This document shows, piece after piece, positions 48,762-64,000 of a stretch of 64,000 nt of DNA; position 1 is the first letter of the stretch; each line of letters opens with the position of its first letter. The DNA is taken from the NCBI GenBank assembly GCA_015057405.1, contig SVEK01000003.1:50791-114790 (forward strand), written 5' to 3'. The DNA is from Lachnospiraceae bacterium. GTDB taxonomy: Bacteria; Bacillota; Clostridia; Lachnospirales; Lachnospiraceae. Under the pieces are notes generated by a model. That model ran no database searches. It had not been told where the DNA came from and was given only the letters and a program-made list of their open reading frames with translations. The translations under genes and the position numbers were made by a program.

Positions 48762-49136
48762 ATGAACTATAAAGATTTATGTCTGTACGCAATTACAGAC
48801 CGTACATTTCTTAAGGGGAAAGCACTTGAAGATGCAGTAAGAGAAGCTATCGAGGGAGGCGCAACCATAATTCAGCTTAGAGAAAAGCAACTTAAAGGTC
48901 TGGAGCTTAAGGAACTGGCTTTAAGTATAAAATCAGTATGTAACGAATATAATGTTCCATTCATTATCAATGATGACGTTATGCTTGCCAAAGAAATCGA
49001 TGCCGACGGAGTTCATGTAGGTATTAGCGATATGAGCGTTAAGGAAGCAAGAAACATACTTGGGCAGGACAAAATTGTGGCTGCCACCATACACACCATA
49101 CACAATACTAAACAGATTATTTTTTTCATTTCATAA
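48762..49136 (+). pseudogene. Truncated thiamine-phosphate synthase (thiE) fused to foreign 3' sequence
   Basis: MNYKDLCLYAITDRTFLKGKALEDAVREAIEGGATIIQLREKQLKGLE...IINDDVMLAKEIDADGVHVGISDMSVKEARNILGQDKIV, then AATIHTIHNTKQIIFFIS* encoded by the repeat beginning at 49076. Confidence 0.88.
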
Positions 49137-49213
49137 CTCCTCCTGTTAAATATAATATTTTTGATATTTTATATTCCAACTCAGTTTTCGCTTTGAAAGT
49201 CGAATTGGCTGAG
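49076..49213. repeat. Left copy of a 138-bp direct repeat (relic of a module lipoprotein 5' end)
   Basis: Gap-free match to 63715-63852 with about 6 mismatches by hand count; minus strand encodes MKKIICLVLCMVCMVAAT. Confidence 0.9.
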
Positions 49214-49365
49214 CGTAGTAACATTTTTCGAGTTCTCTCCCTCATTCCTAACACCAAATTTCACAAGTAACCTTTGTTAATACACTTTAGCACATAAAAT
49301 GAACGCTATTAAAGTCACAATTATTTAAAAGAACATTAGCGAATATCTTCTGCTATTGTTAATCT

Positions 49366-49995
49366 TCAGGATACTACTATCCTCCCTCCATCAATTTCAT
49401 ATATTCTGTCACATACATAGTCTATGTCCTGCTGATTGTGGGAGCAAAGGATTATGGTTTTACCTTTCTTTTTTTCTGCAACAAGAATTTCTCTCATTTT
49501 CATGACCATTTCTTTGTCAAGTCCGTTAAAGGGTTCGTCCAGTATAAGCATGGATGGGTTTTCCATAAGAGCCTGGGCAAGTCCCAGTCTCTGTCGCATA
49601 CCAAGGGAATATTTTTTGACGCTTTTTTTGTCGTCAGGGTTAAGGCCAACAAGTTCCATATATTCCCGTATTGTATCTTTACTTATGTTTTTTCTGATGT
49701 CTGCAAGAACTTTTAAATTCTCATATCCGTTCATGTATGGAATAAATCCCGGTGTTTCTATTATGAATCCTGTTTCAGGTGAGAATTCCGCATCTTTACC
49801 AATTGCTTTTCCATTCACTTTTATTTCACCGGAAAACATGGTATTAAATCCGCAGATACATTTCATAAGCATGGTTTTTCCCGAACCGTTACCTCCCACA
49901 AGCCCTATTGCTTCACCATCATTCACTTTTATGGAAATGTTATTAAGTACGTTATATTTTTTAATTGTTAAAGACACATTATTTACTTCTATCAT
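49366..49995 (-). CDS. ABC transporter ATP-binding protein
   Basis: GGNGSGKTMLMK; YSLGMRQRLGLAQALM; LILDEPFNGLD. Confidence 0.92.
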   Translation of the reverse strand: MIEVNNVSLTIKKYNVLNNISIKVNDGEAIGLVGGNGSGKTMLMKCICGFNTMFSGEIKVNGKAIGKDAEFSPETGFIIETPGFIPYMNGYENLKVLADIRKNISKDTIREYMELVGLNPDDKKSVKKYSLGMRQRLGLAQALMENPSMLILDEPFNGLDKEMVMKMREILVAEKKKGKTIILCSHNQQDIDYVCDRIYEIDGGRIVVS

Positions 49996-50831
49996 GGCAA
50001 AATGTTACCTCCAATCATATCTAAACTTACTTTTCCTGCTTTTTTGTATATAATTATCAGATAAACCACACATGCAAGAGATAACAGCATGATGGAGGCG
50101 TATGGTGAAAATACATACTCTCTGAAATAAGTCTGGTAATGCATTAAAAGCATTCCGTGACATACAGGGAAAAACCACATGGCACTACTTTCCGTAACCA
50201 TTATTCCACACCCTGCTATTATGTGAGCGCACTGTATAAAGAAAAATAACAGTTTCTTTGAATACAGACATCCGGCTAAAAATAACAGACCACAAAACAG
50301 CAAAAGCAGAAACAACAGTAAATATGACAAAAAGAATGCTTTATACGGTGTCATCTGATAGTAAAGATTAACCGGAATCAGTTGTTTTTTATCATAGTCT
50401 GTTATAACAAGACTCCATCCGTTTACCATATAAGCTCTGGTAATTCCCCTTAAAGTTGTGGCAACCGCAATAATGGCTGCGTATGTAAATCCACTAATAA
50501 ACTGAAATAATATTTCTCCCAACACCCAGTTTTTTCTTCCTGCACGGAATATGCAAAAAGGAATGTTATCATTTATCCGTGGGAATGGAGAGATTAGCAC
50601 AATATAAGATATTAATATCAGTAGCAGTCCAAGACTTGAATTAACTGTCGCTATAGGTATTTCAAATAAATTAACAGGCTGGTTCATGTAATCTGATGCA
50701 GTAATTATCGGCATAATAATCATTTTCTCTATAATCAGATAAACTACAGCCAGAATAATTATTTTGGGATTAAGTATAAAATTAATATATTCATTTTTGG
50801 CAACACGCCATATACATTTCAAATTAATCAT
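49992..50831 (-). CDS. ABC transporter permease-like membrane protein
   Basis: Multi-TM; overlaps ATPase start. Confidence 0.65.
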   Translation of the reverse strand: MINLKCIWRVAKNEYINFILNPKIIILAVVYLIIEKMIIMPIITASDYMNQPVNLFEIPIATVNSSLGLLLILISYIVLISPFPRINDNIPFCIFRAGRKNWVLGEILFQFISGFTYAAIIAVATTLRGITRAYMVNGWSLVITDYDKKQLIPVNLYYQMTPYKAFFLSYLLLFLLLLFCGLLFLAGCLYSKKLLFFFIQCAHIIAGCGIMVTESSAMWFFPVCHGMLLMHYQTYFREYVFSPYASIMLLSLACVVYLIIIYKKAGKVSLDMIGGNILP

Positions 50832-51529
50832 ATTCTTTTACTCCTGTATTTCCACATAAGCACGCTCAGAACTGATAAAACTCCTATCATTACAACCGGA
50901 AATAATATAATGTCATTTATAAACATTTCTGATGTAAAATAAGCCAGCATAAACACAAGGCTAAGGTCGAATAAAATATCTCTGTGTAAAATTGCCGTTA
51001 CTATCCCGAACAGTGACATCATTCCCCCAAATAACATCAGCTTCAGGCTTTTTGTAGCAAAAGCTGTTAACAGCTCTCCCATACCCTCCGGTGTATAAAG
51101 ACCTTCATCGGGAAGAAGAAACAGCAATGCAATCTGAAAAATCAAAAGGGATATTATCGTTATACTTATTCCGCTTACAACTGAAAATGAAATCTTTGAT
51201 AATATATATTTTTTAGTACCTTTTCTTTGTTGTATTCCCATATACATTTTAGAATTAATTTCATCCAGAAATAAAGATATTGTAGGGATACAGATTGATA
51301 CTGACATTATTATGTACATCCAGTAGGTGTCTACACGATTCATAACCTGAGGTATCGTTATCCCGTATTCTGTCATAGCCTCTTTGGAATAAAGCATTAC
51401 TGATTCGAATACAGAATATATAACATTATCCCCTGCTACACAGCCTGTAAGCATACACATAACTTCCATTACAATTACGGCAGCAATGTAATACACCATT
51501 CTTTTTCTAATCACCATATATTTTCTCAA
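50828..51529 (-). CDS. ABC transporter permease-like membrane protein
   Basis: Multi-TM; overlaps neighbouring gene. Confidence 0.65.
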   Translation of the reverse strand: MRKYMVIRKRMVYYIAAVIVMEVMCMLTGCVAGDNVIYSVFESVMLYSKEAMTEYGITIPQVMNRVDTYWMYIIMSVSICIPTISLFLDEINSKMYMGIQQRKGTKKYILSKISFSVVSGISITIISLLIFQIALLFLLPDEGLYTPEGMGELLTAFATKSLKLMLFGGMMSLFGIVTAILHRDILFDLSLVFMLAYFTSEMFINDIILFPVVMIGVLSVLSVLMWKYRSKRI

Positions 51530-51541
51530 TGCTCCTCTATC

Positions 51542-52699
51542 TTATAAACCTAAATTCGTATTAAAATCACCGGTTATCATATCTATCGTACAATACTTGT
51601 CATATAGCTCAAAGGGTGACACAGGCATACATATACTGTCCACCGACGATTCTTCTTTTTTACAAAGGAAAACATATACCGGTCTTGCTTCAAAAACCTG
51701 TCCCGGTCCATATAAGCTCTCATAGTTGTTACCTTTTAAGGTTATTTCATACATTGGTGCCACAAGTTCAAACTCCATTGTTCCAAATCCTGAAAGCTTG
51801 GTTGCAACTTTTTCCACTGCATTACTAAAACTGATAATTTTATCCTGTGATGTTGCTTTTATCACATTAAGTGTCTGATTGTTTATAATAAAACTTCCCA
51901 ATTGTTTACTGTCATTATATTGAGCACTGGTTCCGTAGGACATACTTTTAAAGGTTGTTGTCAGATTCTCATCATAGGATTTAAAATAATGATTATTAAA
52001 TTCAATTCCCTTATAACAAAATTCACCACACAAAGATGCCACAGAAGTTTTCCCTTTATCATTCTCAACTTCCACAACAAAAGCATCTCTTATTTCATAA
52101 TCCAATGTGCTGTTATCAAAATTAGCCTTATACCACTCTTTTGCTTCATCACATAATACACTAAGTTTCTTATCCCCGTCCTGAAACTTTATTACCGTGC
52201 TATCAAAGTCGTCTTTACCACGACGATACTTATCCACAAGTACACAGTCCGCTATTTCCAATGAGCTGTCAAAATAAGACACAAATCCACATTCATCAAT
52301 ATTTATCATTTTATCCCCATCTGTGTAACAATGATTAGTTCCCCCCGGCGTAGCAGAGGTTTCATAACTGTCTGTCTTAATACCAAACAACTCCCTATGC
52401 TCTTTTTCATATTTATTAATGTAATCCGACTCCACCTGTACCTCAAGGGTACAAACATCTTCAATACCTGAAAAATCCACACTCTGTGGCAAAATAATAT
52501 TGTCGTATTTTTCTGCTATCTTTTCCATGTCAGTCTGATTCAATTCCTTTACGGTACAATAATCTGAATCAGGATCTTCTATCTGTTTATTATCATTGTA
52601 CTTATTCATATTGTCATACACACCCTGTGGTGCTTCTTTACAACCCGCGAGGGTCATAATGCCCACCATGGACAACAATAATAATGCTGTTTTTTTCAT
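51542..52699 (-). CDS. Lipoprotein of the ABC module, unknown
   Basis: Lipobox GIMTLAGC. Confidence 0.7.
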   Translation of the reverse strand: MKKTALLLLSMVGIMTLAGCKEAPQGVYDNMNKYNDNKQIEDPDSDYCTVKELNQTDMEKIAEKYDNIILPQSVDFSGIEDVCTLEVQVESDYINKYEKEHRELFGIKTDSYETSATPGGTNHCYTDGDKMINIDECGFVSYFDSSLEIADCVLVDKYRRGKDDFDSTVIKFQDGDKKLSVLCDEAKEWYKANFDNSTLDYEIRDAFVVEVENDKGKTSVASLCGEFCYKGIEFNNHYFKSYDENLTTTFKSMSYGTSAQYNDSKQLGSFIINNQTLNVIKATSQDKIISFSNAVEKVATKLSGFGTMEFELVAPMYEITLKGNNYESLYGPGQVFEARPVYVFLCKKEESSVDSICMPVSPFELYDKYCTIDMITGDFNTNLGL

Positions 52700-52726
52700 G
52701 ATAATCTCCCTTACCTAATTACATTT

Positions 52727-53020
52727 TCATATATAATATTGATAACCTTTAACTAAGCCATCTTCATAAAATTGCCCCGTGGATGAAAATGTATGTTCTC
52801 TCGCACAATTATTTTCTAATCTAACTCCTACCTTTGCACCACTAGTTATATAGTCTACATAAAAACACGCTTTAGTACTATTAGCTTTGAATCTTTTTGA
52901 TTCTCTCATAGCCCATTCAGAGGGTTTACTTCTTTGCGGTGATATAATAATGCCATTGAAGCAACAACCGGTAATACCAAGAGTACAAGAACAGTTTAAA
53001 ATCATCCCGAGAAGTATCAT
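52727..53020 (-). CDS. Small Cys-containing secreted-like protein
   Basis: 97-aa ORF, hydrophobic N-terminus, in line with module genes; start and integrity uncertain. Confidence 0.4.
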   Translation of the reverse strand: MILLGMILNCSCTLGITGCCFNGIIISPQRSKPSEWAMRESKRFKANSTKACFYVDYITSGAKVGVRLENNCAREHTFSSTGQFYEDGLVKGYQYYI

Positions 53021-53072
53021 GCGACAAGCACAATTTCTGCCTTGCCTCTAATCAAGATTGTGAACTTGTTTC

Positions 53073-53624
53073 TCAATCATCCATATTTTGTAAAATAGGC
53101 GCTGGGAAATAGTATTGTTCCTCCTCTGTTATTTCCTCTATGATATCTCCGTTAACGTATTTGTACCTTGCAACCTCCTCAACTTCTTTATCTCCACTAT
53201 AAAATACAGCATAGATAATTACATTTCCATCGTAATAATCAGGATTACCAACATCATGTAAGCTTTGTGTCCATGTATTATAATAATCAAGGATTACCAG
53301 TCTCTGTTCCTCGGTCATTTTTTGTTGCTCATTCACACTCAAACTTAGTTCCGCATGAGTCATATTGCTTGTATAAACATTATCAGTATACCTTTCTTCC
53401 CATATACCTGCATCTTTCATTTTCATCGCTTCATGATTATTCAAAATCTCTTCATATTCTTTTTGCAGATTGGCAAATTCTTCATTTTTCTTGTCAATCA
53501 TCTCATCTGAAAATTCTTCGCTATTAGTACTTTCGTTACTCTTCCCGCATCCTCCTACCATACATAAGGACAATATTACAACCATAAACATAATTATTTT
53601 TTTCATTATTTCATTTTCCTCCAA
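53073..53624 (-). CDS. Small lipoprotein, paralog of 63223-63768
   Basis: Lipobox LCMVGGC; shared C-terminal I(Y/F)AVFY...EITEEE pattern. Confidence 0.75.
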   Translation of the reverse strand: MEENEIMKKIIMFMVVILSLCMVGGCGKSNESTNSEEFSDEMIDKKNEEFANLQKEYEEILNNHEAMKMKDAGIWEERYTDNVYTSNMTHAELSLSVNEQQKMTEEQRLVILDYYNTWTQSLHDVGNPDYYDGNVIIYAVFYSGDKEVEEVARYKYVNGDIIEEITEEEQYYFPAPILQNMDD

Positions 53625-54168
53625 TCACGTAACGCTTTACAAAATCAAATATACTGTTCAACAACAAAATCATTAAACAGGTTATCGTTGTAATTAAAAA
53701 TGACCATGCCACATCACTTAAACCAATAACTACAATATCATCTAACCTCGTTATCACCGTTGCCATGACAGTTGCAAAGCTGAATCCGACTATAACAACC
53801 ATTAAATATCTCTTAATTATCTCAATACTTTGAAATGTATTGCTTATGCCACATAATTTAAGAGCATATAATAACTGATGACGTTCCCCACGCCAAATAG
53901 TAGTAACCACTATGGAACTTAGTATAAAACATATTGTAATCATTATATACATTCCGTTCATTATGTTATTTGCAGATAAAAACCGTTCAAAAAAAGTAAT
54001 TTCTTCACCTTGTGTTATAATTTCACTCTCCATACTATTTTCTACTATGTTCCTAATGTCTTCCATACGCATTGTAGAAATTAATATCATTATTACTAAT
54101 GACATTGCTGCAAAACTAATAAATAACAGTGTATTTCCTTTAGGCACTCTTTTATTTATTACTTTCAT
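53611..54168 (-). CDS. Short FtsX/MacB-type permease lacking the extracytoplasmic domain
   Basis: Aligns by eye to the N-terminal TM and C-terminal TM part of 60081-61112 without the intervening ~180 aa. Confidence 0.75.
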   Translation of the reverse strand: MKVINKRVPKGNTLLFISFAAMSLVIMILISTMRMEDIRNIVENSMESEIITQGEEITFFERFLSANNIMNGMYIMITICFILSSIVVTTIWRGERHQLLYALKLCGISNTFQSIEIIKRYLMVVIVGFSFATVMATVITRLDDIVVIGLSDVAWSFLITTITCLMILLLNSIFDFVKRYVIGGK

Positions 54169-54841
54169 CCACAACACCATCCTTTATATGAATTATCCTC
54201 TTACAGTTTTCAGCAACCTTCATATCATGTGTAACAACAATTATTGTTTTCCCACTTTCATTGAGTCCTTTTAATATGGACATAACATCTTTACTTGTTT
54301 GTTCATCCAAAGCCCCTGTAGGCTCATCTGCAAGAATAATATCCGGTTTCTTCACAATAGCCCGCGCTATTGCTACTCTCTGCTGCTGTCCTCCTGACAA
54401 TTCTGCAGGATAGGCTTTTGCCTTGTCCTCTATACCAAGTTCAGCTAATGCAGACATCACTAATTCTTTAATTCTATGTCCGGAATACCGTTGATACTTT
54501 AAAGGCAGCGCAACATTTTGAAATACATTAATATCATCTACAAGCGCAAAATACTGCACAACAAATCCAATCTTATCACGCCTAAATCTAGTTAAATTGC
54601 GCTGACTTGAAAAATCAATTTTTTTTCCACAATAGTAATATTCCCCTTTTTCAAAGGACATCATTCCACCTAATATGTTTAGCAGAGTTGATTTGCCGGA
54701 ACCACTCTTTCCCATAATTGCAACCATATCCCCCTGCTCTACCGACATGCTGGCACCCCTAAGAGCCCGTACAGTTCCTTCATTTTTTCCAAATGTTTTA
54801 CATATATCTTTCACTTCAATAATATTCATAATAAACACCAA
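54152..54841 (-). CDS. MacB/LolD-type ABC ATPase
   Basis: [49 protein letters not shown]. Confidence 0.94.
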   Translation of the reverse strand: MVFIMNIIEVKDICKTFGKNEGTVRALRGASMSVEQGDMVAIMGKSGSGKSTLLNILGGMMSFEKGEYYYCGKKIDFSSQRNLTRFRRDKIGFVVQYFALVDDINVFQNVALPLKYQRYSGHRIKELVMSALAELGIEDKAKAYPAELSGGQQQRVAIARAIVKKPDIILADEPTGALDEQTSKDVMSILKGLNESGKTIIVVTHDMKVAENCKRIIHIKDGVVDESNK

Positions 54842-54842
54842 T

Positions 54843-56255
54843 TTAATCCTTCTGTCTGATAAAATGTTCTATATTTGCGCCCTTTAACAGAATCAGAATT
54901 AGTAACGTTCCAAATATAAATACTAATCCTACACATGTATTAGCAAATGATACTATTACTTCCTTTCGACACAAACCAACGTTATTTTCAAAAAACACAT
55001 ATCTGGCCACCAATACAGATGGAATCAACACACATATAACTTCCATCAAATATGACGCTATTATCATCCACATGGAACATCCATTCATTAAATATATTGA
55101 ATATGTTCTTTTGTTCTGTCGAATTTTTTCATAAAGGGTTATGCCAAGGCAATACAAAGTAAAACATACGAGAATTATTGTAAAAATAAGCATAATTTTG
55201 ACGCTTTGAGTTGATTCCTTTCTTAACAAATCAACTCCCATTGAAACACCTTCAAGATGGACAGAAGGAATTCCATGCTTTTCACCAATTTCTCTAAGAG
55301 AATCAACCTGTTTGTTAAGAAATTCCTCCTTGACAATTATCGTTCCATTCTGAAGCGACACGAAATCAAGATTAGCATATTTTCTTATTGCTTTTTGATT
55401 ACTTTCCTCCGTGTTTCCCCGAATAATATCCTCATTAATCCTTATACCCAAAGGGAAGATAATGTGGGAATCTAATATGCAGCTTGAAAAATATGACACT
55501 CCACTATATCCAAGTTTTGGTGTAGATGCTCCTTTTTCAAGAATTCCAATAACCCGGCATCTGTAAACATTATCCCAATATAAAATATCAAGTTCACTTC
55601 CTATTTCCACCAACCCTTTATAATCGTTCCCTAAAATAATCGGAACTGAATCACCAGCGTCTTTTATCGTCATGTTATTTTCATTAAATCCCTCACCAAC
55701 TTCAACCGTGAGATTGCAGAGATTATATGCGTTAAGGTCAAACTGATCTGATTGGAGACAAACAGTACTACATATTTCAGCATTATTATCTTCTCCAAAC
55801 ATAGCTGTTATCGGTTCATCTCCCCATTCATCATCACAAAATCTCTTATATACATCCTTCCCAAGCAATAAATCCGCATCATCTCGCCTAATATAGACAG
55901 GTTGTTCAATAAGACTCGACATTATTTTACAATCAGGAATTGAATGTATGTCTTGATAATAATTGATAATATTTATACATCCTTCGTCTGACGCTAATGC
56001 CTCATTCATTACATCCATATCACCTGACATATAATAATCCAGATTACACCACAGTTCACTATCTGATAACATAGAATCCATCCTGGCGTATCTGTCACCT
56101 ATATCAAGATAATATGAACTCATTATTACTGTCATTATTAAACTCAAAGAAAACATAACCGCCAACAGTATATTGCGTGTAATTCCTTTTTTGAAGCTGC
56201 GAAAAAATTCTTCAAGCACAAATATTAAACCTTTCATTATTTTCCCTACTTTCAA
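54843..56255 (-). CDS. FtsX/MacB-type ABC permease
   Basis: N-terminal TM, extracytoplasmic domain, three C-terminal TMs; paralog of 61842 ORF. Confidence 0.82.
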   Translation of the reverse strand: MKVGKIMKGLIFVLEEFFRSFKKGITRNILLAVMFSLSLIMTVIMSSYYLDIGDRYARMDSMLSDSELWCNLDYYMSGDMDVMNEALASDEGCINIINYYQDIHSIPDCKIMSSLIEQPVYIRRDDADLLLGKDVYKRFCDDEWGDEPITAMFGEDNNAEICSTVCLQSDQFDLNAYNLCNLTVEVGEGFNENNMTIKDAGDSVPIILGNDYKGLVEIGSELDILYWDNVYRCRVIGILEKGASTPKLGYSGVSYFSSCILDSHIIFPLGIRINEDIIRGNTEESNQKAIRKYANLDFVSLQNGTIIVKEEFLNKQVDSLREIGEKHGIPSVHLEGVSMGVDLLRKESTQSVKIMLIFTIILVCFTLYCLGITLYEKIRQNKRTYSIYLMNGCSMWMIIASYLMEVICVLIPSVLVARYVFFENNVGLCRKEVIVSFANTCVGLVFIFGTLLILILLKGANIEHFIRQKD

Positions 56256-56286
56256 TATTCGTAATCTGAAATATTTGTACTATATA

Positions 56287-56673
56287 CTAGTTTTGGAACC
56301 AGCGATTTGTTCCCGAAGTATCATTAGGACTTGCTACATTATAACTGTGCCATGCAACTGTATTCCTGGATGCACCTGAATTAGATATTGCTTTTCCTAA
56401 TCCGGTCTTTACAACATAGTAACCATTCTCTATCATACTTGCACCGGCATTAACTGACGCCGGAACACCATTACTAGCAATACAACCAGATACAACAGTA
56501 TGACTATAACTGTAGGTAGCATCTCTTTTTATCTTTGAACCATCAACAGATAATACGCAATTACTATACCTAACTGTCTTTGCTTCTGCTGTTGTAATAA
56601 CTGTGCATATTGCCATTGCGCTCAATGTAGTTATTGCTATAGTCTTTTTAATATTGTTAATTACTTTTCTCAT
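56287..56673 (-). CDS. Small secreted protein (bacteriocin-like candidate)
   Basis: Signal peptide MRKVINNIKKTIAITTLSAMAICTVITTAEA; ~97-aa mature Ser/Gly/Asn-rich protein with two Cys; immediately upstream of the ABC module. Confidence 0.6.
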   Translation of the reverse strand: MRKVINNIKKTIAITTLSAMAICTVITTAEAKTVRYSNCVLSVDGSKIKRDATYSYSHTVVSGCIASNGVPASVNAGASMIENGYYVVKTGLGKAISNSGASRNTVAWHSYNVASPNDTSGTNRWFQN

Positions 56674-56803
56674 AATAATAATCTACCTTCCTTTTTACTT
56701 TCTATTACTTTACTAAAAATAATTTCAAGATATTATGTACTTAAAAAATACAATATCTTATATTCATCTTAACCTAAAAGCCATATATTCAACGTGATGT
56801 TTC

Positions 56804-56844
56804 GCGTTCTTTTCAGGTGCTTCAACACCGTATGAAAAGAACGC
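56804..56844. other. Nested strong hairpin
   Basis: GCGTTCTTTTCA-GGTG-cttcaa-CACC-gta-TGAAAAGAACGC, followed on the plus strand by TTTTT. Confidence 0.85.
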
Positions 56845-57080
56845 TTTTTAAATTCTGCTCTCTGCATATTTTTCATGGTTTCTATACATTCTCTCACCAC
56901 CTTCACATTATACAGTAGCAGTTTTTATAGACCCTCTCCAAAGTCTGTATCATTTCATACATTTTCTCTATTATTATAATAGTTCCCTTTTTTCAAAATA
57001 GATTAAAATGTAATCAAATGCCCTTTAACTGTAACGAACGACATCTTTTGTTCTTTATTAAGCCACCAATACACAGTAAT

Positions 57081-57671
57081 TCAACATCGAATATGACAAC
57101 GCTTATTCTTTTCACTTTTTGCTTCAAGTATCAATGAAATGCATTCTGTCAAATGTGCCAGCATTATACACTTTGATATTGTCGTACATTTTAACACCAA
57201 TAAAATTACTCCTATACAGAATTCTATTCCCCAAACTACTTTAACCTTTTTCCTATATATTACCTTTTCTATTTGGTCTAAGTCCTTGTTTTCACATCCC
57301 ATCGGTGCCAATAATAAAATAATCAAACCCGAAATAATACTTACTATTAAACAAACAACACTACTTAGTTTAACAAATTTTATTATCGCAAGATTTAATG
57401 ATAGAATTAAAACCGTACCAATAAAACACTTTATAGGTGTAGTTGCATGATATCCACCTGCATAGATTCTAAGAATTACAAAAGATAGTGTGAGAATAAT
57501 TCCTTCAATAACTTCCCCAAAAACTAATCCAACAAATAAGATGGTTATAATGTTTACCAAATACGTTAATAACTGATTCAATCCAAATACATATATTTCC
57601 TCATCATCTTCTTTAAACATATTTTTTTCTGAATAACTGTGCATTATTTTTTTTGCAAGCACGTGGAACAT
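57081..57671 (-). CDS. agrB: AgrB-family peptide protease/exporter
   Basis: AgrB pattern: LRIYAGGYHATTPIKCFIGT (conserved His and downstream Cys), multi-TM. Confidence 0.9.
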   Translation of the reverse strand: MFHVLAKKIMHSYSEKNMFKEDDEEIYVFGLNQLLTYLVNIITILFVGLVFGEVIEGIILTLSFVILRIYAGGYHATTPIKCFIGTVLILSLNLAIIKFVKLSSVVCLIVSIISGLIILLLAPMGCENKDLDQIEKVIYRKKVKVVWGIEFCIGVILLVLKCTTISKCIMLAHLTECISLILEAKSEKNKRCHIRC

Positions 57672-57814
57672 TAGTTTTTCCTCAATTTCTTTACTTTTTC
57701 AGGCAACTGTGGCTGATAAAAAAAGAAACCACACACTGAATTAGCACTTTGTTTAGAAGTTAAATACGCAACTCTAATCACCGTTTTACTAATCTTATCT
57801 GTACCTTTTCTCAT
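57671..57814 (-). CDS. agrD: AgrD-like cyclic autoinducer pre-peptide (47 aa, not in ORF track)
   Basis: MRKGTDKISKTVIRVAYLTSKQSANSVCGFFFYQPQLPEKVKKLRKN; RBS gaggagg; stop overlaps the agrB start (TAATG); Cys core followed by YQPxxPE. Confidence 0.88.
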   Translation of the reverse strand: MRKGTDKISKTVIRVAYLTSKQSANSVCGFFFYQPQLPEKVKKLRKN

Positions 57815-57967
57815 TTTTTAAGTCCTCCTCTTTGTTTTTATTTAAATTACATATATAATCTACCACAAAATAACTTCAATAACGAAGTCTTGCCCGAATT
57901 TATATATGTTTATGCCTAAATTTACAGTTTTCGCTCCTCAATTAATACATTTTAACCCCGAAACGTA

Positions 57968-59245
57968 TTACACACATAAGATTACTTTAACCTTAAAATC
58001 ATTTTCTTCATATTCAATATTCGCAATTCCGGAATATTTTTCAATTGTTTCCTTAACGCTTGTTAACCCTATTCCGTGTAACAGTTCATCATTCTTTTTT
58101 GTTCTCAATTTACCATTTACAACATTTACATCGCCATCGAAGCTGTTTGATATATCAATGATGATGCAGCCTTTTTCATATTCAATATCTAAGTTAATGT
58201 ATCTGTTTTTGCTACATTTTTCCGCTGCCTCTATTGCATTGTCCAGCAAATTTCCCATAACAACTATAATATCATCATCCTCTATTTCTACATCCTGGGG
58301 AATAGTAATGGAAGAAGTAACTTTTATTTCATACTTATTTGCTTGTGTTAATTTGTAATTAACTATACTGTCTATTGCCACATTTCCGGTTTTGCTGTAC
58401 ATTTTCGTATCTTCCATCTTTTCCGAAAGCAATGAAATATAGTCTATTGCTTTTTTATAGTTTTCTGTTGCCAAAAGCTCATTTATTACTGTTAACCGAT
58501 TCCTGATATCGTGTCTGAATTTTCTCGTTTCCTCATAATTATGCTGCAATAATACTGACTGCTCATGATAATACTCTCTTTCTGCCATAAGTATTCCAGC
58601 CTGAGTTTTCTCCTTGAAAAAGGCAGCTAAGGAGTCGTACAAATATATCATTACTAAGTTAATTACAACTGTTAATATCAACGACACAATAGCAATATTA
58701 TCTTCTATTTCACTTTGCTGAAATACTAATATCTCCATAACTATGGTTATTACAGGAACTACCAATATTGCCACGGCAAAAGCTTTGGGAATAGGAATAC
58801 TTTTATTTAAGTTTTTAAATCTGCTTAATAACACAGTAATAAACCATAATATCAGTTCTGATAATACGACTGCAAAAGACTGTCCGCTACTTGTTTTTTG
58901 GTTAATGTTGAAATTACTTATTCCTATCACCAAAGCAACAATAGCTTCCGAAACGAAACAACACATGTATATCAATATAGTGGTAATTATTTTTTTAGAA
59001 TATTTTGACTGATATCCAAGAGTTATTATAAATATTGATAATATGTATGACATTAGATTAACCAAAGGATAAGATGCATATATAGCAACTACACCTGAAA
59101 CTGCTAATTTTATACTATATGCAACTAATAAAAAGATTTTATCATAACTATACCCTACAAAAAAAATCGTCATGAATTTAAAAATAACGTAAAGGTCAAT
59201 AATGTATGTGCTGATTATCAGAATATTTTCTAATATGCTTTCCAT
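57968..59245 (-). CDS. AgrC-like GHKL sensor histidine kinase
   Basis: Polytopic N-terminus; KFRHDIRNRL; GNLLDNAIEAAEKC; GIGLTSVKE. Confidence 0.92.
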   Translation of the reverse strand: MESILENILIISTYIIDLYVIFKFMTIFFVGYSYDKIFLLVAYSIKLAVSGVVAIYASYPLVNLMSYILSIFIITLGYQSKYSKKIITTILIYMCCFVSEAIVALVIGISNFNINQKTSSGQSFAVVLSELILWFITVLLSRFKNLNKSIPIPKAFAVAILVVPVITIVMEILVFQQSEIEDNIAIVSLILTVVINLVMIYLYDSLAAFFKEKTQAGILMAEREYYHEQSVLLQHNYEETRKFRHDIRNRLTVINELLATENYKKAIDYISLLSEKMEDTKMYSKTGNVAIDSIVNYKLTQANKYEIKVTSSITIPQDVEIEDDDIIVVMGNLLDNAIEAAEKCSKNRYINLDIEYEKGCIIIDISNSFDGDVNVVNGKLRTKKNDELLHGIGLTSVKETIEKYSGIANIEYEENDFKVKVILCV

Positions 59246-59973
59246 TAATCTTTCTCCTTTAAAACTTCCATATGCATCTCACGTATTGCCTTTCTTCTTG
59301 ACTGACTGATTGGTAATACAACATCGTTAATCATTGTAATTTCTTCGTAGGCAATCTTTTTTATATAACTATAGTTCACAATAATTGACTTATGGATAAA
59401 CCAAAATCTTTTTCCCTTAACTTTTGAATATACATTATCCATAGAGTCATAAAATTGATTACTGCCATCCTTCGTTACCATTGTAACCTTTTTATTTTTA
59501 CATTCAAAATACATAATATCCGAAAGATAGGTTTTATAATATTCATATCCCTTTTTGTATGTAAATGTTTCCTTTTCTATTTTTGCCAATACCATGTATT
59601 TGTTCATTACTTTCTTTATTTTATCTTTGCACAATGGCTTCACAAGAAAATTAATAGGTCGGGAATCAAACAACTCCATAGCATATCCTTCTTTTGCTGA
59701 GATATATGCTATCTGAATTGTTTCATTTTTTATAAGTTCTCGTATGTACTTACCAACATCCACACCATTTTTCTTAGGCAGCTCAATATCCAAAAATATC
59801 AATTCATACACAGTTCTGCTAAGTTCATTACACAACGCTTCTCCGTCATTATAAATGCCTATTTCACACTCAAATTCCATTTCCTTCGAAAGTTCCAATA
59901 ACATACTTTCAACCTGTGTACATATAACATTCTCATCATCACATATTGCTATTTTAATATCCATATTTACCAC
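59245..59973 (-). CDS. AgrA-like LytTR response regulator
   Basis: IAICDDE receiver, IFLDIELPKKNG, C-terminal LytTR pattern (FWFIHKSIIVNYSYIKKI). Confidence 0.92.
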   Translation of the reverse strand: MVNMDIKIAICDDENVICTQVESMLLELSKEMEFECEIGIYNDGEALCNELSRTVYELIFLDIELPKKNGVDVGKYIRELIKNETIQIAYISAKEGYAMELFDSRPINFLVKPLCKDKIKKVMNKYMVLAKIEKETFTYKKGYEYYKTYLSDIMYFECKNKKVTMVTKDGSNQFYDSMDNVYSKVKGKRFWFIHKSIIVNYSYIKKIAYEEITMINDVVLPISQSRRKAIREMHMEVLKEKD

Positions 59974-60080
59974 CTGTATGATTTTCTTCTATTTTATCAC
60001 ATCCTTAACAGTAATAAAACATCTTCTTATTTTCTAGAAAAAAATAGCCGTCTTTTCCACTCCAATGCCTAACTTGTTCT

Positions 60081-61112
60081 TTATACCTTCTTAGGAAATA
60101 AAACAAAGTTTACCGTATACAACGTCCCAAGTATGACTAACCCCAATCCCGCTGACATTATAAATGCCAGTAAAATGTCAGTTAAAAATATTGTTATATC
60201 ACTAATGCATGCACCTATTATCAGGGCTATGATGACACTTGTCAGATAAGCACACAAAGTTACCGGGTAGTATTTTTTGAAGATTTCCAGTGCCATTAGT
60301 CCTTTGTTATAACCACACAGGTTAAGGGCCGCAAAAAACTTACCACGAAATTCCAGCCACATTTTTGTTACCAGTACCGTACACAGTGAAAAACATACTA
60401 CAATCATTACATATAACAGGTTCATTATGGCTCCGCCGGCAATAATGTCATTAAGAAATCCCTCACTACTGTAACCTGGAACAATAACTACACTGTCTGA
60501 TTTTCCCGAAAGTTCTCTTTCCAAATCCGTTCCAACAAGTATGATGTCTTTCTTTGATTTTGCATCAAGATAATACTGTCCCGCAATCCCGTTTATACCA
60601 AGTGCAGAATTAAAGTCAATTAATATCATATTGTTAACTCTGCTCTCTCTCTCCAGTCCCATTACGCCTATTACTTCAAACTTTGTGTCTCCATATGAAA
60701 AATAGGCTTTTTCATCTTCGTACTGAATCTTGTCCTGATGATCGGCTCCAATCACCGCTGTAGGGTTAGATGTAAGAGAGGTGTCCGCGGTAAAATAATC
60801 CCCCCATATCATAGGCGGAGTCTGCACTTCTCCGTTAATGTATACGCCCCTTATTACAAATTCCTCTTCTTCCATGGGAAGAAATATTCCATAATCTTCC
60901 CAGTCGGCTGACAGGTCAGGAATAACCATGTCCCACAAATCATCATCCCCTTCAAATACCGTGAAGGAGGTTTCGTTCCCTGTATACATGCCATTACGGC
61001 TCATTTCATTGTAGCGCTGGGTCCTTACCGAAGATGCAATTATTATAAAACATAGGGAAACTGCAACAAAACTGGCAAATAACATACCGTTTCCCTTTGA
61101 TATTTTTCTCAT
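60081..61112 (-). CDS. FtsX/MacB-type ABC permease (full-length paralog)
   Basis: TM + extracytoplasmic domain + 3 TM; start chosen at MRKISKG. Confidence 0.8.
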   Translation of the reverse strand: MRKISKGNGMLFASFVAVSLCFIIIASSVRTQRYNEMSRNGMYTGNETSFTVFEGDDDLWDMVIPDLSADWEDYGIFLPMEEEEFVIRGVYINGEVQTPPMIWGDYFTADTSLTSNPTAVIGADHQDKIQYEDEKAYFSYGDTKFEVIGVMGLERESRVNNMILIDFNSALGINGIAGQYYLDAKSKKDIILVGTDLERELSGKSDSVVIVPGYSSEGFLNDIIAGGAIMNLLYVMIVVCFSLCTVLVTKMWLEFRGKFFAALNLCGYNKGLMALEIFKKYYPVTLCAYLTSVIIALIIGACISDITIFLTDILLAFIMSAGLGLVILGTLYTVNFVLFPKKV

Positions 61113-61123
61113 TATATTGTCAA

Positions 61124-61822
61124 TCACCTGGAACCTCCATCTAATACACCATCGTCTGCAACTTTTCCATCCCTTAATCTGATTACCCTGTCGCATTTTG
61201 CGGCAACATTGGCATCGTGGGTAACAATAATTATCGTTTTTCCCTGATTATTAAGTTTTCTGAATATGTCCATAACAACTTCCCCGGTTGCCTCATCAAG
61301 AGCTCCGGTAGGTTCATCCGCAAGAATCAAATCAGGTTCCTTAACTATTGCCCTTGCTATTGCAACTCTCTGCTGCTGTCCGCCAGACAATTCGGTAGGA
61401 TATGCTTTTCTTTTTTCTGATAACTCCAGTTCCTCCAATGCTTTTAGCACTTTTTCCTTTCTCTCTTTTGACGAATAACCAAGATATTTAAGGGGAATCT
61501 CCACATTTTTATGTATGGTCATGTCATCAATCAGGGCAAAATACTGAACTACAAATCCTATTTCCTTTCGTCTGAAACGAGTAAGTTCCTTCTGTTTTGT
61601 GGTTACTACTTTTTTTCCTTTGTAATAATACTCTCCCGAATCCATGGTAATTAATCCGCCAAGTGTATTAAGAAGTGTAGACTTTCCACACCCGCTTTTT
61701 CCCATTATGGCAACCATTTCTCCTTTTTTAATGGATAAGCTGACACCCTGCAGTGCACTCACTGCCGCGCCACTCTTTCCATATGTTTTTTTTACGTCAA
61801 CAAGTTCTATTATATTATCCAT
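61124..61822 (-). CDS. MacB/LolD-type ABC ATPase
   Basis: [49 protein letters not shown]. Confidence 0.94.
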
Positions 61823-61841
61823 AACCTTCTACCTCTTTTAC

Positions 61842-63203
61842 CTACTCACCATTTTTTATAAGTTTTTCCGTATCAACACCCCTCATAATACATACTAGGA
61901 ACGCCACTCCCAGTAAATATGCGGCAAGAACCACCATATAAACAGCATTAATTATGACATCAGCATTGAAATAAACAGAAGACATTTCCTGTCCGAATAT
62001 ACACTTTCCAAGAATCAGCGACGGGATTATTATTGCTGCAATCTCCATCATAAAAGGAATGGTTATCATCGATGTACTGCACCCGTTCATAAGATATATT
62101 CCATAGATTTCCTGATTATTTTTTATTTTATTATGAATAATCAGGAACAGGGAAAATAATGTAAAACACACAAGACATATGCTTATAATCAGCATAATCC
62201 TAATATTTCCCACTGCCTCCTTACGAAACAACCTCTGACCCATTGATGACCCTGTAGATGACATTGGGGGAAGATTATATTTGTCTCCTATCTGCGAAAA
62301 CAATTCAGCAATTTCCCTGAATTCAGTGTTATAATGAAACATCATCTGACAGGTCTCAAGTGAATGATAATTAACATATGCATACCTTGCCAGTACATTA
62401 TTATCCGTTGTTTCAAAATTCAGATTAATTCCGCAAGGGAAAATAATATGAGAGTCTAATGACATAAGTCCCTGCCCTGATGAACCAAAGTTGTATACTT
62501 TACTTCCCTGTTCAAGTATTCCCACAACCTTACAGTTAAACAGATAATCGGTTCCGTCTATGGCAATCCTCAGTTTAGTGCCAACGTCCATAAACTCACT
62601 GTAACTGCTCCCAAGAACTACTGGCAGCTCATCTGAGGGACTGTTTAATGTTGTATTATCACGGGTAATTCCTTCCCCTTTGACAGTTTTAAATCCAAAG
62701 TATTCATACGCATCTGTATCACAATGAATAGCCTTAAATTGTCTGTATTCCTCATCAACTCCGTCAATTTTAGCACCAAAACTTCCTCCGGGGAAATCCT
62801 GTGGCTCAAACATTCTTACTTTATCCTCCGGAATATATTTATCACATTCCTCCTCAATCAGCAGAATTTGTTGGATTGTATTAATGGACATAACCGGATG
62901 GGACGGAATACTGTAGACTTCTTTGTAATAATCCATAACTTTCTGACTGTCTTTTGCAGTTTCAAAACTTTTCTCAACCTCAATCCAGTCCTGACCCTCA
63001 AAACGAATGTTATACCATGTACCGTCTTCGTCGTAATTACTTACACTGTCTGAAGTACGTTCCCCCAAATCAAGATAATAAGAAGACATAAGCACGGTCA
63101 TTGTAATGCATATGGAAAACATTATCATTAACAGGATATTATTTATTATTCCTTTTTGAAAACTCCTGAAAAATTCATCAAATATAAAATGTATCTTTCC
63201 CAT
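61842..63203 (-). CDS. FtsX/MacB-type ABC permease
   Basis: Start chosen at MGKIHFIFDEFFRSFQKGIINN, matching FVLEEFFRSFKKGITRN in the 54843 paralog. Confidence 0.82.
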   Translation of the reverse strand: MGKIHFIFDEFFRSFQKGIINNILLMIMFSICITMTVLMSSYYLDLGERTSDSVSNYDEDGTWYNIRFEGQDWIEVEKSFETAKDSQKVMDYYKEVYSIPSHPVMSINTIQQILLIEEECDKYIPEDKVRMFEPQDFPGGSFGAKIDGVDEEYRQFKAIHCDTDAYEYFGFKTVKGEGITRDNTTLNSPSDELPVVLGSSYSEFMDVGTKLRIAIDGTDYLFNCKVVGILEQGSKVYNFGSSGQGLMSLDSHIIFPCGINLNFETTDNNVLARYAYVNYHSLETCQMMFHYNTEFREIAELFSQIGDKYNLPPMSSTGSSMGQRLFRKEAVGNIRIMLIISICLVCFTLFSLFLIIHNKIKNNQEIYGIYLMNGCSTSMITIPFMMEIAAIIIPSLILGKCIFGQEMSSVYFNADVIINAVYMVVLAAYLLGVAFLVCIMRGVDTEKLIKNGE

Positions 63204-63222
63204 AATAAACTCCTTTGAAGCC

Positions 63223-63768
63223 TTACTCTTCAAGCCCGGTATCATCATCATGAACTCTACTTGAAGATATAATAGTATTAAACCAAATCTCATCTTCCTC
63301 TGTAATATCCATCTTTCCTTCACTTCCATATTTTACAGTTTCCAACACATCATAAGTGTCTTTATCATAAAATACAGCAAAAATAGAGTTCACTTTATAG
63401 TCACAGTAGTCATCACCCTCATCAAACTTTTCTTCCCAGTAATACTCCAAAATTTCCATAATTTCTTCATCACTGAGTTTTTCATACACAGTTATGCCCA
63501 GATGTACATCACATATTTCTTCCGAACTGCTGTAATCAGCGTAATCAGGATAAGTTCTGCCACAACTCCTTTCCTGCCATTTACCATCCTTATAACTATC
63601 TAAGTCCACATCTTCTTTTTCTTCAACCCACACATCTTCACCCGATTCCTCTACACTCTCACTTACATTTTCTTTTGGTGGTTCTGTATTAACCAGACTT
63701 TTCTTTCCACACCCTGTGGCTGCCACCATACACACCATACACAATGCTATACAGATTATTTTTTTCAT
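63223..63768 (-). CDS. Small lipoprotein of ABC module B
   Basis: MKKIICIALCMVCMVAATGCGKK lipobox; paralog of 53073-53624. Confidence 0.8.
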   Translation of the reverse strand: MKKIICIALCMVCMVAATGCGKKSLVNTEPPKENVSESVEESGEDVWVEEKEDVDLDSYKDGKWQERSCGRTYPDYADYSSSEEICDVHLGITVYEKLSDEEIMEILEYYWEEKFDEGDDYCDYKVNSIFAVFYDKDTYDVLETVKYGSEGKMDITEEDEIWFNTIISSSRVHDDDTGLEE

Positions 63769-63852
63769 TTCATAATTCCTCCTGTTAAATATAATATTTT
63801 TGATATTTTATATTACAACTCAGTTTTCGCTTTGAAAGTCGAATTAACTGAG
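63715..63852. repeat. Right copy of the 138-bp direct repeat (signal peptide + upstream region of lipoprotein gene)
   Basis: Gap-free match to 49076-49213. Confidence 0.9.
63819..63852. promoter_or_regulatory. Near-perfect inverted repeat upstream of ABC module B
   Basis: Minus strand CTCAGTTaaTTCGaCTTT-c-AAAGCGAAAACTGAG. Confidence 0.6.
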
Positions 63853-64000
63853 AGTATCAACTTTTTTATTTCATAAGGTTAGGGTGTCAAAAGGTCATTG
63901 ACCATTGATATAAATTTGTACCTTGAAAATTTAACACGATATATCAAATCATCCAGATATTTGGTAAAATATAAGTATTAAATATCGAGGTGATTTATAT

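What the first reader, a model, noticed from the sequence alone, without database searches (positions are those of the whole stretch)
57081..59973. Complete agr-type quorum-sensing locus (response regulator, kinase, AgrD, AgrB)
Seen: four collinear minus-strand genes, LytTR regulator, GHKL kinase, AgrD, AgrB. The order is regulator/kinase first, then DB, unlike staphylococcal BDCA. A ~150-bp gap before agrD suggests DB has its own promoter.
Basis: partly seen in the sequence, partly recalled or inferred. Interest (0 to 1): 0.7.

Follow-up and report, generated by a model that had tools for sequence, protein, structure and literature searches.

The report
agr quorum-sensing locus beside secreted-protein cassettes
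A Lachnospiraceae bacterium carries a complete, intact cell-density sensing (agr) locus of a known gene order, wedged between two ABC-transporter cassettes and next to an unannotated secreted beta-sheet protein that it probably switches on, in a layout that resembles a bacteriocin with its immunity transporter.

Summary
The four genes are real and intact: LytTR regulator, GHKL kinase, AgrD, AgrB, with AgrB His/Cys catalytic residues and a clear cyclic-peptide precursor. The order A-C-D-B is not new: Clostridioides difficile has it (PMC3754575), as do relatives here. The 153-bp agrC-agrD gap holds three in-phase 12-bp repeats spaced 21 and 22 bp, the LytTR pattern; the same periods are the most enriched upstream of 19 related agrD genes. 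agrB is followed by Sec128, a secreted all-beta protein in no Pfam or NCBIfam family. It is followed by an ABC permease cassette, and a second cassette precedes agrA. The secreted-protein/permease pair recurs across Lachnospiraceae loci, and agr loci of at least four separate AgrB lineages sit beside such cassettes (P ~ 2e-5 in the genus). A hairpin leader upstream of Sec128 is almost confined to these loci. Most likely this is an agr system controlling a bacteriocin-like secreted protein with its immunity/efflux transporter. Control and antibacterial activity are inferred, not shown.

The parts
59245..59973 (-). agrA: response regulator with LytTR DNA-binding domain
   Evidence: Pfam Response_reg 7.5e-12, LytTR 2.3e-16; FLDI and HKSIIVN motifs
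57968..59245 (-). agrC: membrane GHKL histidine kinase, start overlaps agrA stop
   Evidence: PF14501 5.2e-26; RHDI, NLLDNA, GIGL motifs
57891..57945 (-). three in-phase direct repeats (TTAATTGAGGAG, TAAATTTAGGCA, TAAATTCGGGCA; steps 21 and 22 bp), putative AgrA/LytTR sites of the agrDB promoter
   Evidence: best-scoring pairs in the whole window; period 21/22 enriched upstream of 19 agrD genes
57671..57814 (-). agrD: autoinducing peptide precursor ...SANSV-CGFFF-YQPQLPEKVKKLRKN; predicted 5-residue thiolactone ring CGFFF
   Evidence: TIGR04223 37 bits, cut-off 19; ring boundaries inferred by comparison with other AgrD
57081..57671 (-). agrB: AgrD-processing membrane peptidase, start overlaps agrD stop
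   Evidence: Pfam AgrB 7.8e-38; GGYH-x6-C
56795..56910 (-). leader element of Sec128: SD plus short ORF (MYRNHEKYAESRI*) and long hairpin AAAAAGCGTTCTTTTCATACGGTGTTGAAGCACCTGAAAAGAACGC
   Evidence: fold z -3.8; found at Sec cassettes only, apart from one other secreted-protein operon
56287..56673 (-). Sec128: signal peptide plus ~97-aa mature all-beta protein, unannotated family, candidate bacteriocin-like effector
   Evidence: family alignments A2/A4; AlphaFold pLDDT 85.6; no Pfam/NCBIfam/PDB match
54843..56255 (-). PermL_dn: MacB/FtsX-like permease subunit 1 of downstream cassette
   Evidence: weak FtsX; family A1
54152..54841 (-). ATP_dn: ABC ATPase of downstream cassette
   Evidence: best NCBIfam model TIGR03608 L_ocin_972_ABC 232.7 bits, below its cut-off 254.85
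53611..54180 (-). PermS_dn: permease subunit 2, shorter than its relatives (189 against ~345 aa), extracellular part missing
   Evidence: comparison with PermS_up and L005/L046 PermS
53073..53624 (-). LP_dn: small lipoprotein of the cassette
   Evidence: HMM family LP
60081..61196 (-). PermS_up: permease subunit 2 of upstream cassette
   Evidence: FtsX 1.7e-4; 61% to the paralogue at G000:C54
61124..61822 (-). ATP_up: ABC ATPase of upstream cassette
   Evidence: TIGR03608 248.7 bits, cut-off 254.85; 81% to C54 paralogue
61842..63329 (-). PermL_up: permease subunit 1 of upstream cassette
   Evidence: 65% to C54 paralogue
63223..63768 (-). LP_up: small lipoprotein of upstream cassette; contig ends 232 bp further on
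   Evidence: 46% to C54 paralogue

Best explanation
A complete agr-type quorum-sensing locus that probably controls the adjacent secreted-protein operon. AgrB cuts and cyclises AgrD into an exported thiolactone peptide; AgrC senses it and phosphorylates AgrA; AgrA binds the in-phase repeats in the agrC-agrD gap and turns on agrDB. No terminator was found between agrB and the next genes, so this transcript, or a second promoter in the 407-bp gap, would also express Sec128 and the PermL-ATP-PermS-LP cassette. Sec128 is most likely a Sec-exported bacteriocin-like protein and the ABC cassettes its immunity/efflux system. Shown: gene identity, integrity, repeat spacing, family membership of Sec128, recurrent co-location. 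Inferred: AgrA binding, co-transcription, peptide structure, antibacterial role.
For: Domains and motifs. Repeats of period 21/22 upstream of agrD: highest mean z of 28 periods over 19 loci, and the best period in all four nearest loci L001, L007, L009, L010; three in-phase half-sites in the window. Sec genes lie 27-172 bp from PermL in every complete genus locus with both, and the pair recurs in other Lachnospiraceae. agr-cassette neighbours: 3 of 9 agrB in the genus against 0.06 expected, P ~ 2e-5; at least 4 changes of the label on the AgrB tree, forced by well-supported branches. Own-genome C54 shows AgrB fused in frame to a Sec tail, so the two were probably once neighbours there too. ATPase best matches the lactococcin 972 ABC model. 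No terminator-like site between agrB and Sec128. Precedents: Fsr controls Sec-exported enterocin O16 (PMC5454873); streptococcin B scbABC is pheromone-controlled (PMC11796350).
Against: Sec128 shows no sequence or fold match to any known bacteriocin. No convincing LytTR site lies in the agrB-sec gap: best pair 9/12, reached by 64% of shuffles. Most cassettes in the genus have no agr beside them, so agr is not required for the module. PermS_dn is short and the downstream cassette may be decayed.
Confidence: 0.6

Rival explanations
1. An ordinary agr locus that merely lies in a variable, gene-exchange-prone island; agr controls only itself and distant genes, and the cassettes have their own regulation.
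For: Most PermL/Sec cassettes in the genus lack agr; no clear AgrA site directly upstream of Sec128; Sec128 has its own leader element.
Against: Repeated association with at least four agr lineages and enrichment in the genus; no terminator between agrB and Sec128.
Confidence: 0.25
2. The secreted protein is not an antibacterial but a surface- or host-directed protein (adhesin-like or inhibitor), and the MacB/Lol-like ABC cassette is its export or cell-envelope maturation machinery.
For: Generic beta-sandwich model with no bacteriocin match; lipoprotein in the cassette; MacB/LolD-type ATPase scores close behind.
Against: Layout secreted protein, permease, ATPase equals that of lactococcin 972 on pBL1; divergence, several paralogues and orphan cassettes without a Sec gene suit toxin/immunity better.
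Confidence: 0.12
3. Sec128 is a true distant lactococcin 972 family member and the cassette a split version of its immunity permease and ATPase.
For: Same gene layout on pBL1; ATPases match TIGR03608 best, 37% identity to the pBL1 ATPase; all-beta model.
Against: Profile comparison with lactococcin 972 gives probability 0.4% (single sequence on that side), permease comparison 1.6%; no lactococcin 972 family hit in Pfam or NCBIfam.
Confidence: 0.1

Closest known systems
Clostridioides difficile R20291 agr (agr2) locus, agrACDB (PMC3754575)
   Same: Same four genes in the same order; LytTR regulator, GHKL kinase, AgrD, AgrB
   Different: Suggested there to be a single transcript, controlling virulence and colonization genes; no adjacent Sec/ABC cassettes seen in the passages read. 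Here a 153-bp gap with repeats separates agrAC from agrDB
Enterococcus faecalis Fsr system and enterocin O16/EntV (PMC5454873)
   Same: agr-type cyclic-peptide quorum sensing controlling a Sec-exported antimicrobial; the regulator gene fsrA is expressed independently of the system
   Different: Enterocin O16 is encoded elsewhere (ef1097) and needs gelatinase processing; no relation to Sec128 was found by family searches
Lactococcin 972 / streptococcin B (scbABC) loci (PMC11796350; pBL1 NC_004955)
   Same: Sec-exported small protein followed by integral membrane protein and ABC ATPase; scb is under pheromone control
   Different: No sequence relation of the secreted protein or permease; two permease subunits and a lipoprotein here; agr instead of ComE/ComR
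Staphylococcus aureus agrBDCA
   Same: Same components and the same kind of direct-repeat sites upstream of the peptide operon
   Different: Gene order; no RNAIII match (Rfam search of 49000-64000 gave nothing)

Membership tests
agr-type quorum-sensing locus | AgrB-family peptidase with the His/Cys catalytic pair | tested here: met
   Pfam AgrB 7.8e-38, GGYH-x6-C
agr-type quorum-sensing locus | AgrD precursor adjacent to agrB | tested here: met
   TIGR04223 37 bits, cut-off 19; overlaps agrB
agr-type quorum-sensing locus | GHKL polytopic kinase plus LytTR response regulator | tested here: met
agr-type quorum-sensing locus | AgrA-type tandem repeat sites upstream of the peptide operon | tested here: met
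   period 21/22 repeats; binding itself not testable
agr-type quorum-sensing locus | Secreted thiolactone peptide and density-dependent autoinduction | not testable with these tools
   needs mass spectrometry and reporter assays
Lactococcin 972 family bacteriocin locus | Secreted protein matches the lactococcin 972 family models | tested here: not met
   no such hit among 15 members at permissive E; hhalign probability 0.4%
Lactococcin 972 family bacteriocin locus | ATPase over the TIGR03608 cut-off | tested here: not met
   best or second-best model but 215.7-248.7 bits against 254.85 for the ATPases listed
Lactococcin 972 family bacteriocin locus | Large bacteriocin-associated integral membrane protein | tested here: not met
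   hhalign probability 1.6%
Lactococcin 972 family bacteriocin locus | Gene layout: Sec-exported protein, membrane protein, ABC ATPase | tested here: met
   additional lipoprotein and second permease here
Sec128 family (defined here) | Signal peptide, conserved S-x-T motif, Ser, His and C-terminal Trp; gene directly before a PermL cassette | tested here: met

The most novel reading that the evidence does not exclude
A previously undescribed class of Sec-exported beta-sandwich bacteriocins of Lachnospiraceae, each with a dedicated four-part ABC immunity cassette and often a shared leader-hairpin RNA, onto which agr quorum-sensing loci of different lineages have been recruited independently.
Probability: 0.4. 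Interest if true: 0.7.

Novelty: new variant of a known kind. Interest (0 to 1): 0.5.

Why it matters
agr systems are common in gut Clostridia but their targets are mostly unknown. Here the likely target lies next door, is encoded by a compact recurrent module, and can be tested by expressing one secreted protein and deleting one cassette. If right, it adds a bacteriocin-like class in Lachnospiraceae that current family libraries miss, and a reason why these genomes carry several agr types.

Tried and rejected
Gene order as a novelty: rejected, known in C. difficile and relatives. Lactococcin 972 membership: sequence, profile and PDB-fold searches did not support it. First structure run with signal peptide gave pLDDT 72 and meaningless matches. 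Leader hairpin as a terminator: rejected, no U-run; as a general mobile repeat: unlikely, only 4 copies in 397 genomes; as a known RNA: no Rfam match. A LytTR site directly upstream of Sec128: not significant. Plasmid origin of Sec128: no match. A first alignment attempt had wrong coordinates, and alignment A5 shifted the hairpin by one base, so no pair counting was done on it.

Full report
The locus. agrA (59973-59245) has receiver and LytTR domains, agrC (59245-57968) a GHKL kinase domain, agrD (57814-57671) matches the NCBIfam AgrD model at 37 bits (cut-off 19), and agrB (57671-57081) matches Pfam AgrB at 7.8e-38. Catalytic and phospho-acceptor motifs are present. The peptide precursor ends ...SANSVCGFFFYQPQLPEKVKKLRKN; by analogy with other AgrD the ring is Cys plus four residues, CGFFF, and AgrB would cut before YQP (inference).

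Order and promoters. agrA/agrC and agrD/agrB each overlap by a base, with 153 bp between the pairs. A-C-D-B is not new: C. difficile R20291 has it (PMC3754575) and so do the nearest relatives of this agr in other genera (L037, L038, L040, and L039 as C-D-B at a contig end). In the gap the best-matching repeat pairs of the entire window occur: three half-sites at 57945, 57924 and 57902 with steps of 21 and 22 bp. That is the arrangement expected for LytTR dimers (own knowledge; S. aureus AgrA binds two direct repeats upstream of P2 and P3, PMC4227749). Across 19 distinct agrD upstream regions, periods 22 and 21 have the highest mean z among 28 periods tested, and the four loci of the window's own type all have 21 or 22 as their single best period. 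This supports an AgrA-dependent promoter for agrDB. The scoring pattern was taken from the window's own repeats, so that scan shows uniqueness in the window, while one search is the independent test.

What lies beside it. agrB is followed by Sec128 (56673-56287), with a signal peptide and no Pfam or NCBIfam family. It is followed by PermL_dn, ATP_dn, PermS_dn and LP_dn. A homologous cassette, LP_up, PermL_up, ATP_up, PermS_up, lies before agrA. The ATPases match the lactococcin 972 ABC model best or nearly best, but below its cut-off.

Recurrence. A profile of PermL found 20 loci in Lachnospiraceae and related MAGs, and 15 complete or nearly complete copies in 7 of 10 genomes of the genus. A small secreted protein precedes many of them. 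Fourteen of these align with Sec128 with invariant residues although identity to it is only 19-32%, and 18 with further members. In the genus, Sec lies 27-172 bp from PermL in the complete loci; the exceptions are a copy at a contig end and the C54 remnant. The C54 locus of the same genome has agrD, then an AgrB fused in frame to a Sec tail, then the cassette, which looks like a deletion that joined agrB to the neighbouring sec gene (an assembly error is not excluded).

Link between agr and the cassette. In the genus 3 of 9 agrB matches are within 5 kb of a PermL, against 0.06 expected (P ~ 2e-5; two of the nine are neighbours on one contig). On a tree of 35 AgrB proteins the cassette-linked ones need four changes, and well-supported branches force at least four: the window type, the C54/L046 type, the L066 type and the L076-L081 type. 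Caveats: L066 carries a more distant permease pair and a secreted protein that my profile does not recognise, no AgrD was found beside AgrB in L076-L081, and changes on a tree may be gains or losses. Most cassettes in the genus have no agr, so the link is recurrent but optional.

Leader element. The Sec128 leader holds a short ORF and a long hairpin (z = -3.8). The element is found in the own genome at C42 (this locus), C32 (just upstream of another Sec gene) and C54, and upstream of Sec in L078, L079, L081 and L083. The pattern has four hits in 397 family genomes: these three, and one in G001 upstream of a different secreted protein followed by a lipoprotein that is 30% identical to the window's LP385. 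It is absent from the leaders of several other Sec genes. The inner stem has G-C in some copies and A-U in others, one compensatory change read by eye. Its function is unknown; it lacks the U-run of a terminator. I suggest translational or processing control of secreted-protein operons.

Structure and family. The mature Sec128 model is all-beta (pLDDT 85.6, pTM 0.78) and looks like a generic immunoglobulin-type sandwich without a significant PDB match. Direct comparison with lactococcin 972 from pBL1 shows no sequence relation, nor does its permease. It therefore works, at most, like that system; it is not filed as a member.

Mechanism and rating. I consider it most likely (0.6) that this agr controls the adjacent Sec128 operon and that the operon is bacteriocin-like. 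Direct precedent for agr-type control of a Sec-exported antimicrobial is Fsr and enterocin O16 (PMC5454873), and for pheromone control of a lactococcin-972-like locus, streptococcin B (PMC11796350). The agr locus itself is an ordinary member of its kind; the linked unannotated module lifts the interest to moderate.

Noticed in passing
window 56795-56910 (minus); L133 10849; L005 ~4120; L078, L079, L081, L083; L141 1502: A conserved leader hairpin with a short upstream ORF, almost confined to secreted-protein/ABC operons of this genus and a few Lachnospiraceae MAGs; no Rfam family. It may be a new regulatory RNA.
   Followed up: partly
window 49366-53020 (minus): A second, different cassette: a 97-aa protein with a hydrophobic start, a 385-aa lipoprotein, two ABC-2-like membrane proteins and an ATPase. 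Its ATPase (59%) and one membrane protein (25%) have relatives just downstream of an agrACDB locus in L038, and its lipoprotein (30%) in L144.
   Followed up: partly
L005 4706-5200 (G000:C54): AgrB cut short and fused in frame to the C-terminal part of a Sec128-like protein, as if a deletion joined agrB to the neighbouring sec gene; could also be an assembly error.
   Followed up: partly
window 53611-54180: PermS_dn lacks about 155 aa of the extracellular part present in its relatives; in-frame deletion or decay.
   Followed up: no
L005 and L046: A second agr type in which agrAC plus a predicted HTH regulator are divergent from agrDB, with the same AIP core NSTCFFYS in two species.
   Followed up: no
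window 64000: The window ends at the contig end, 232 bp upstream of LP_up, so a possible Sec or agr gene of the upstream cassette cannot be seen.
   Followed up: no
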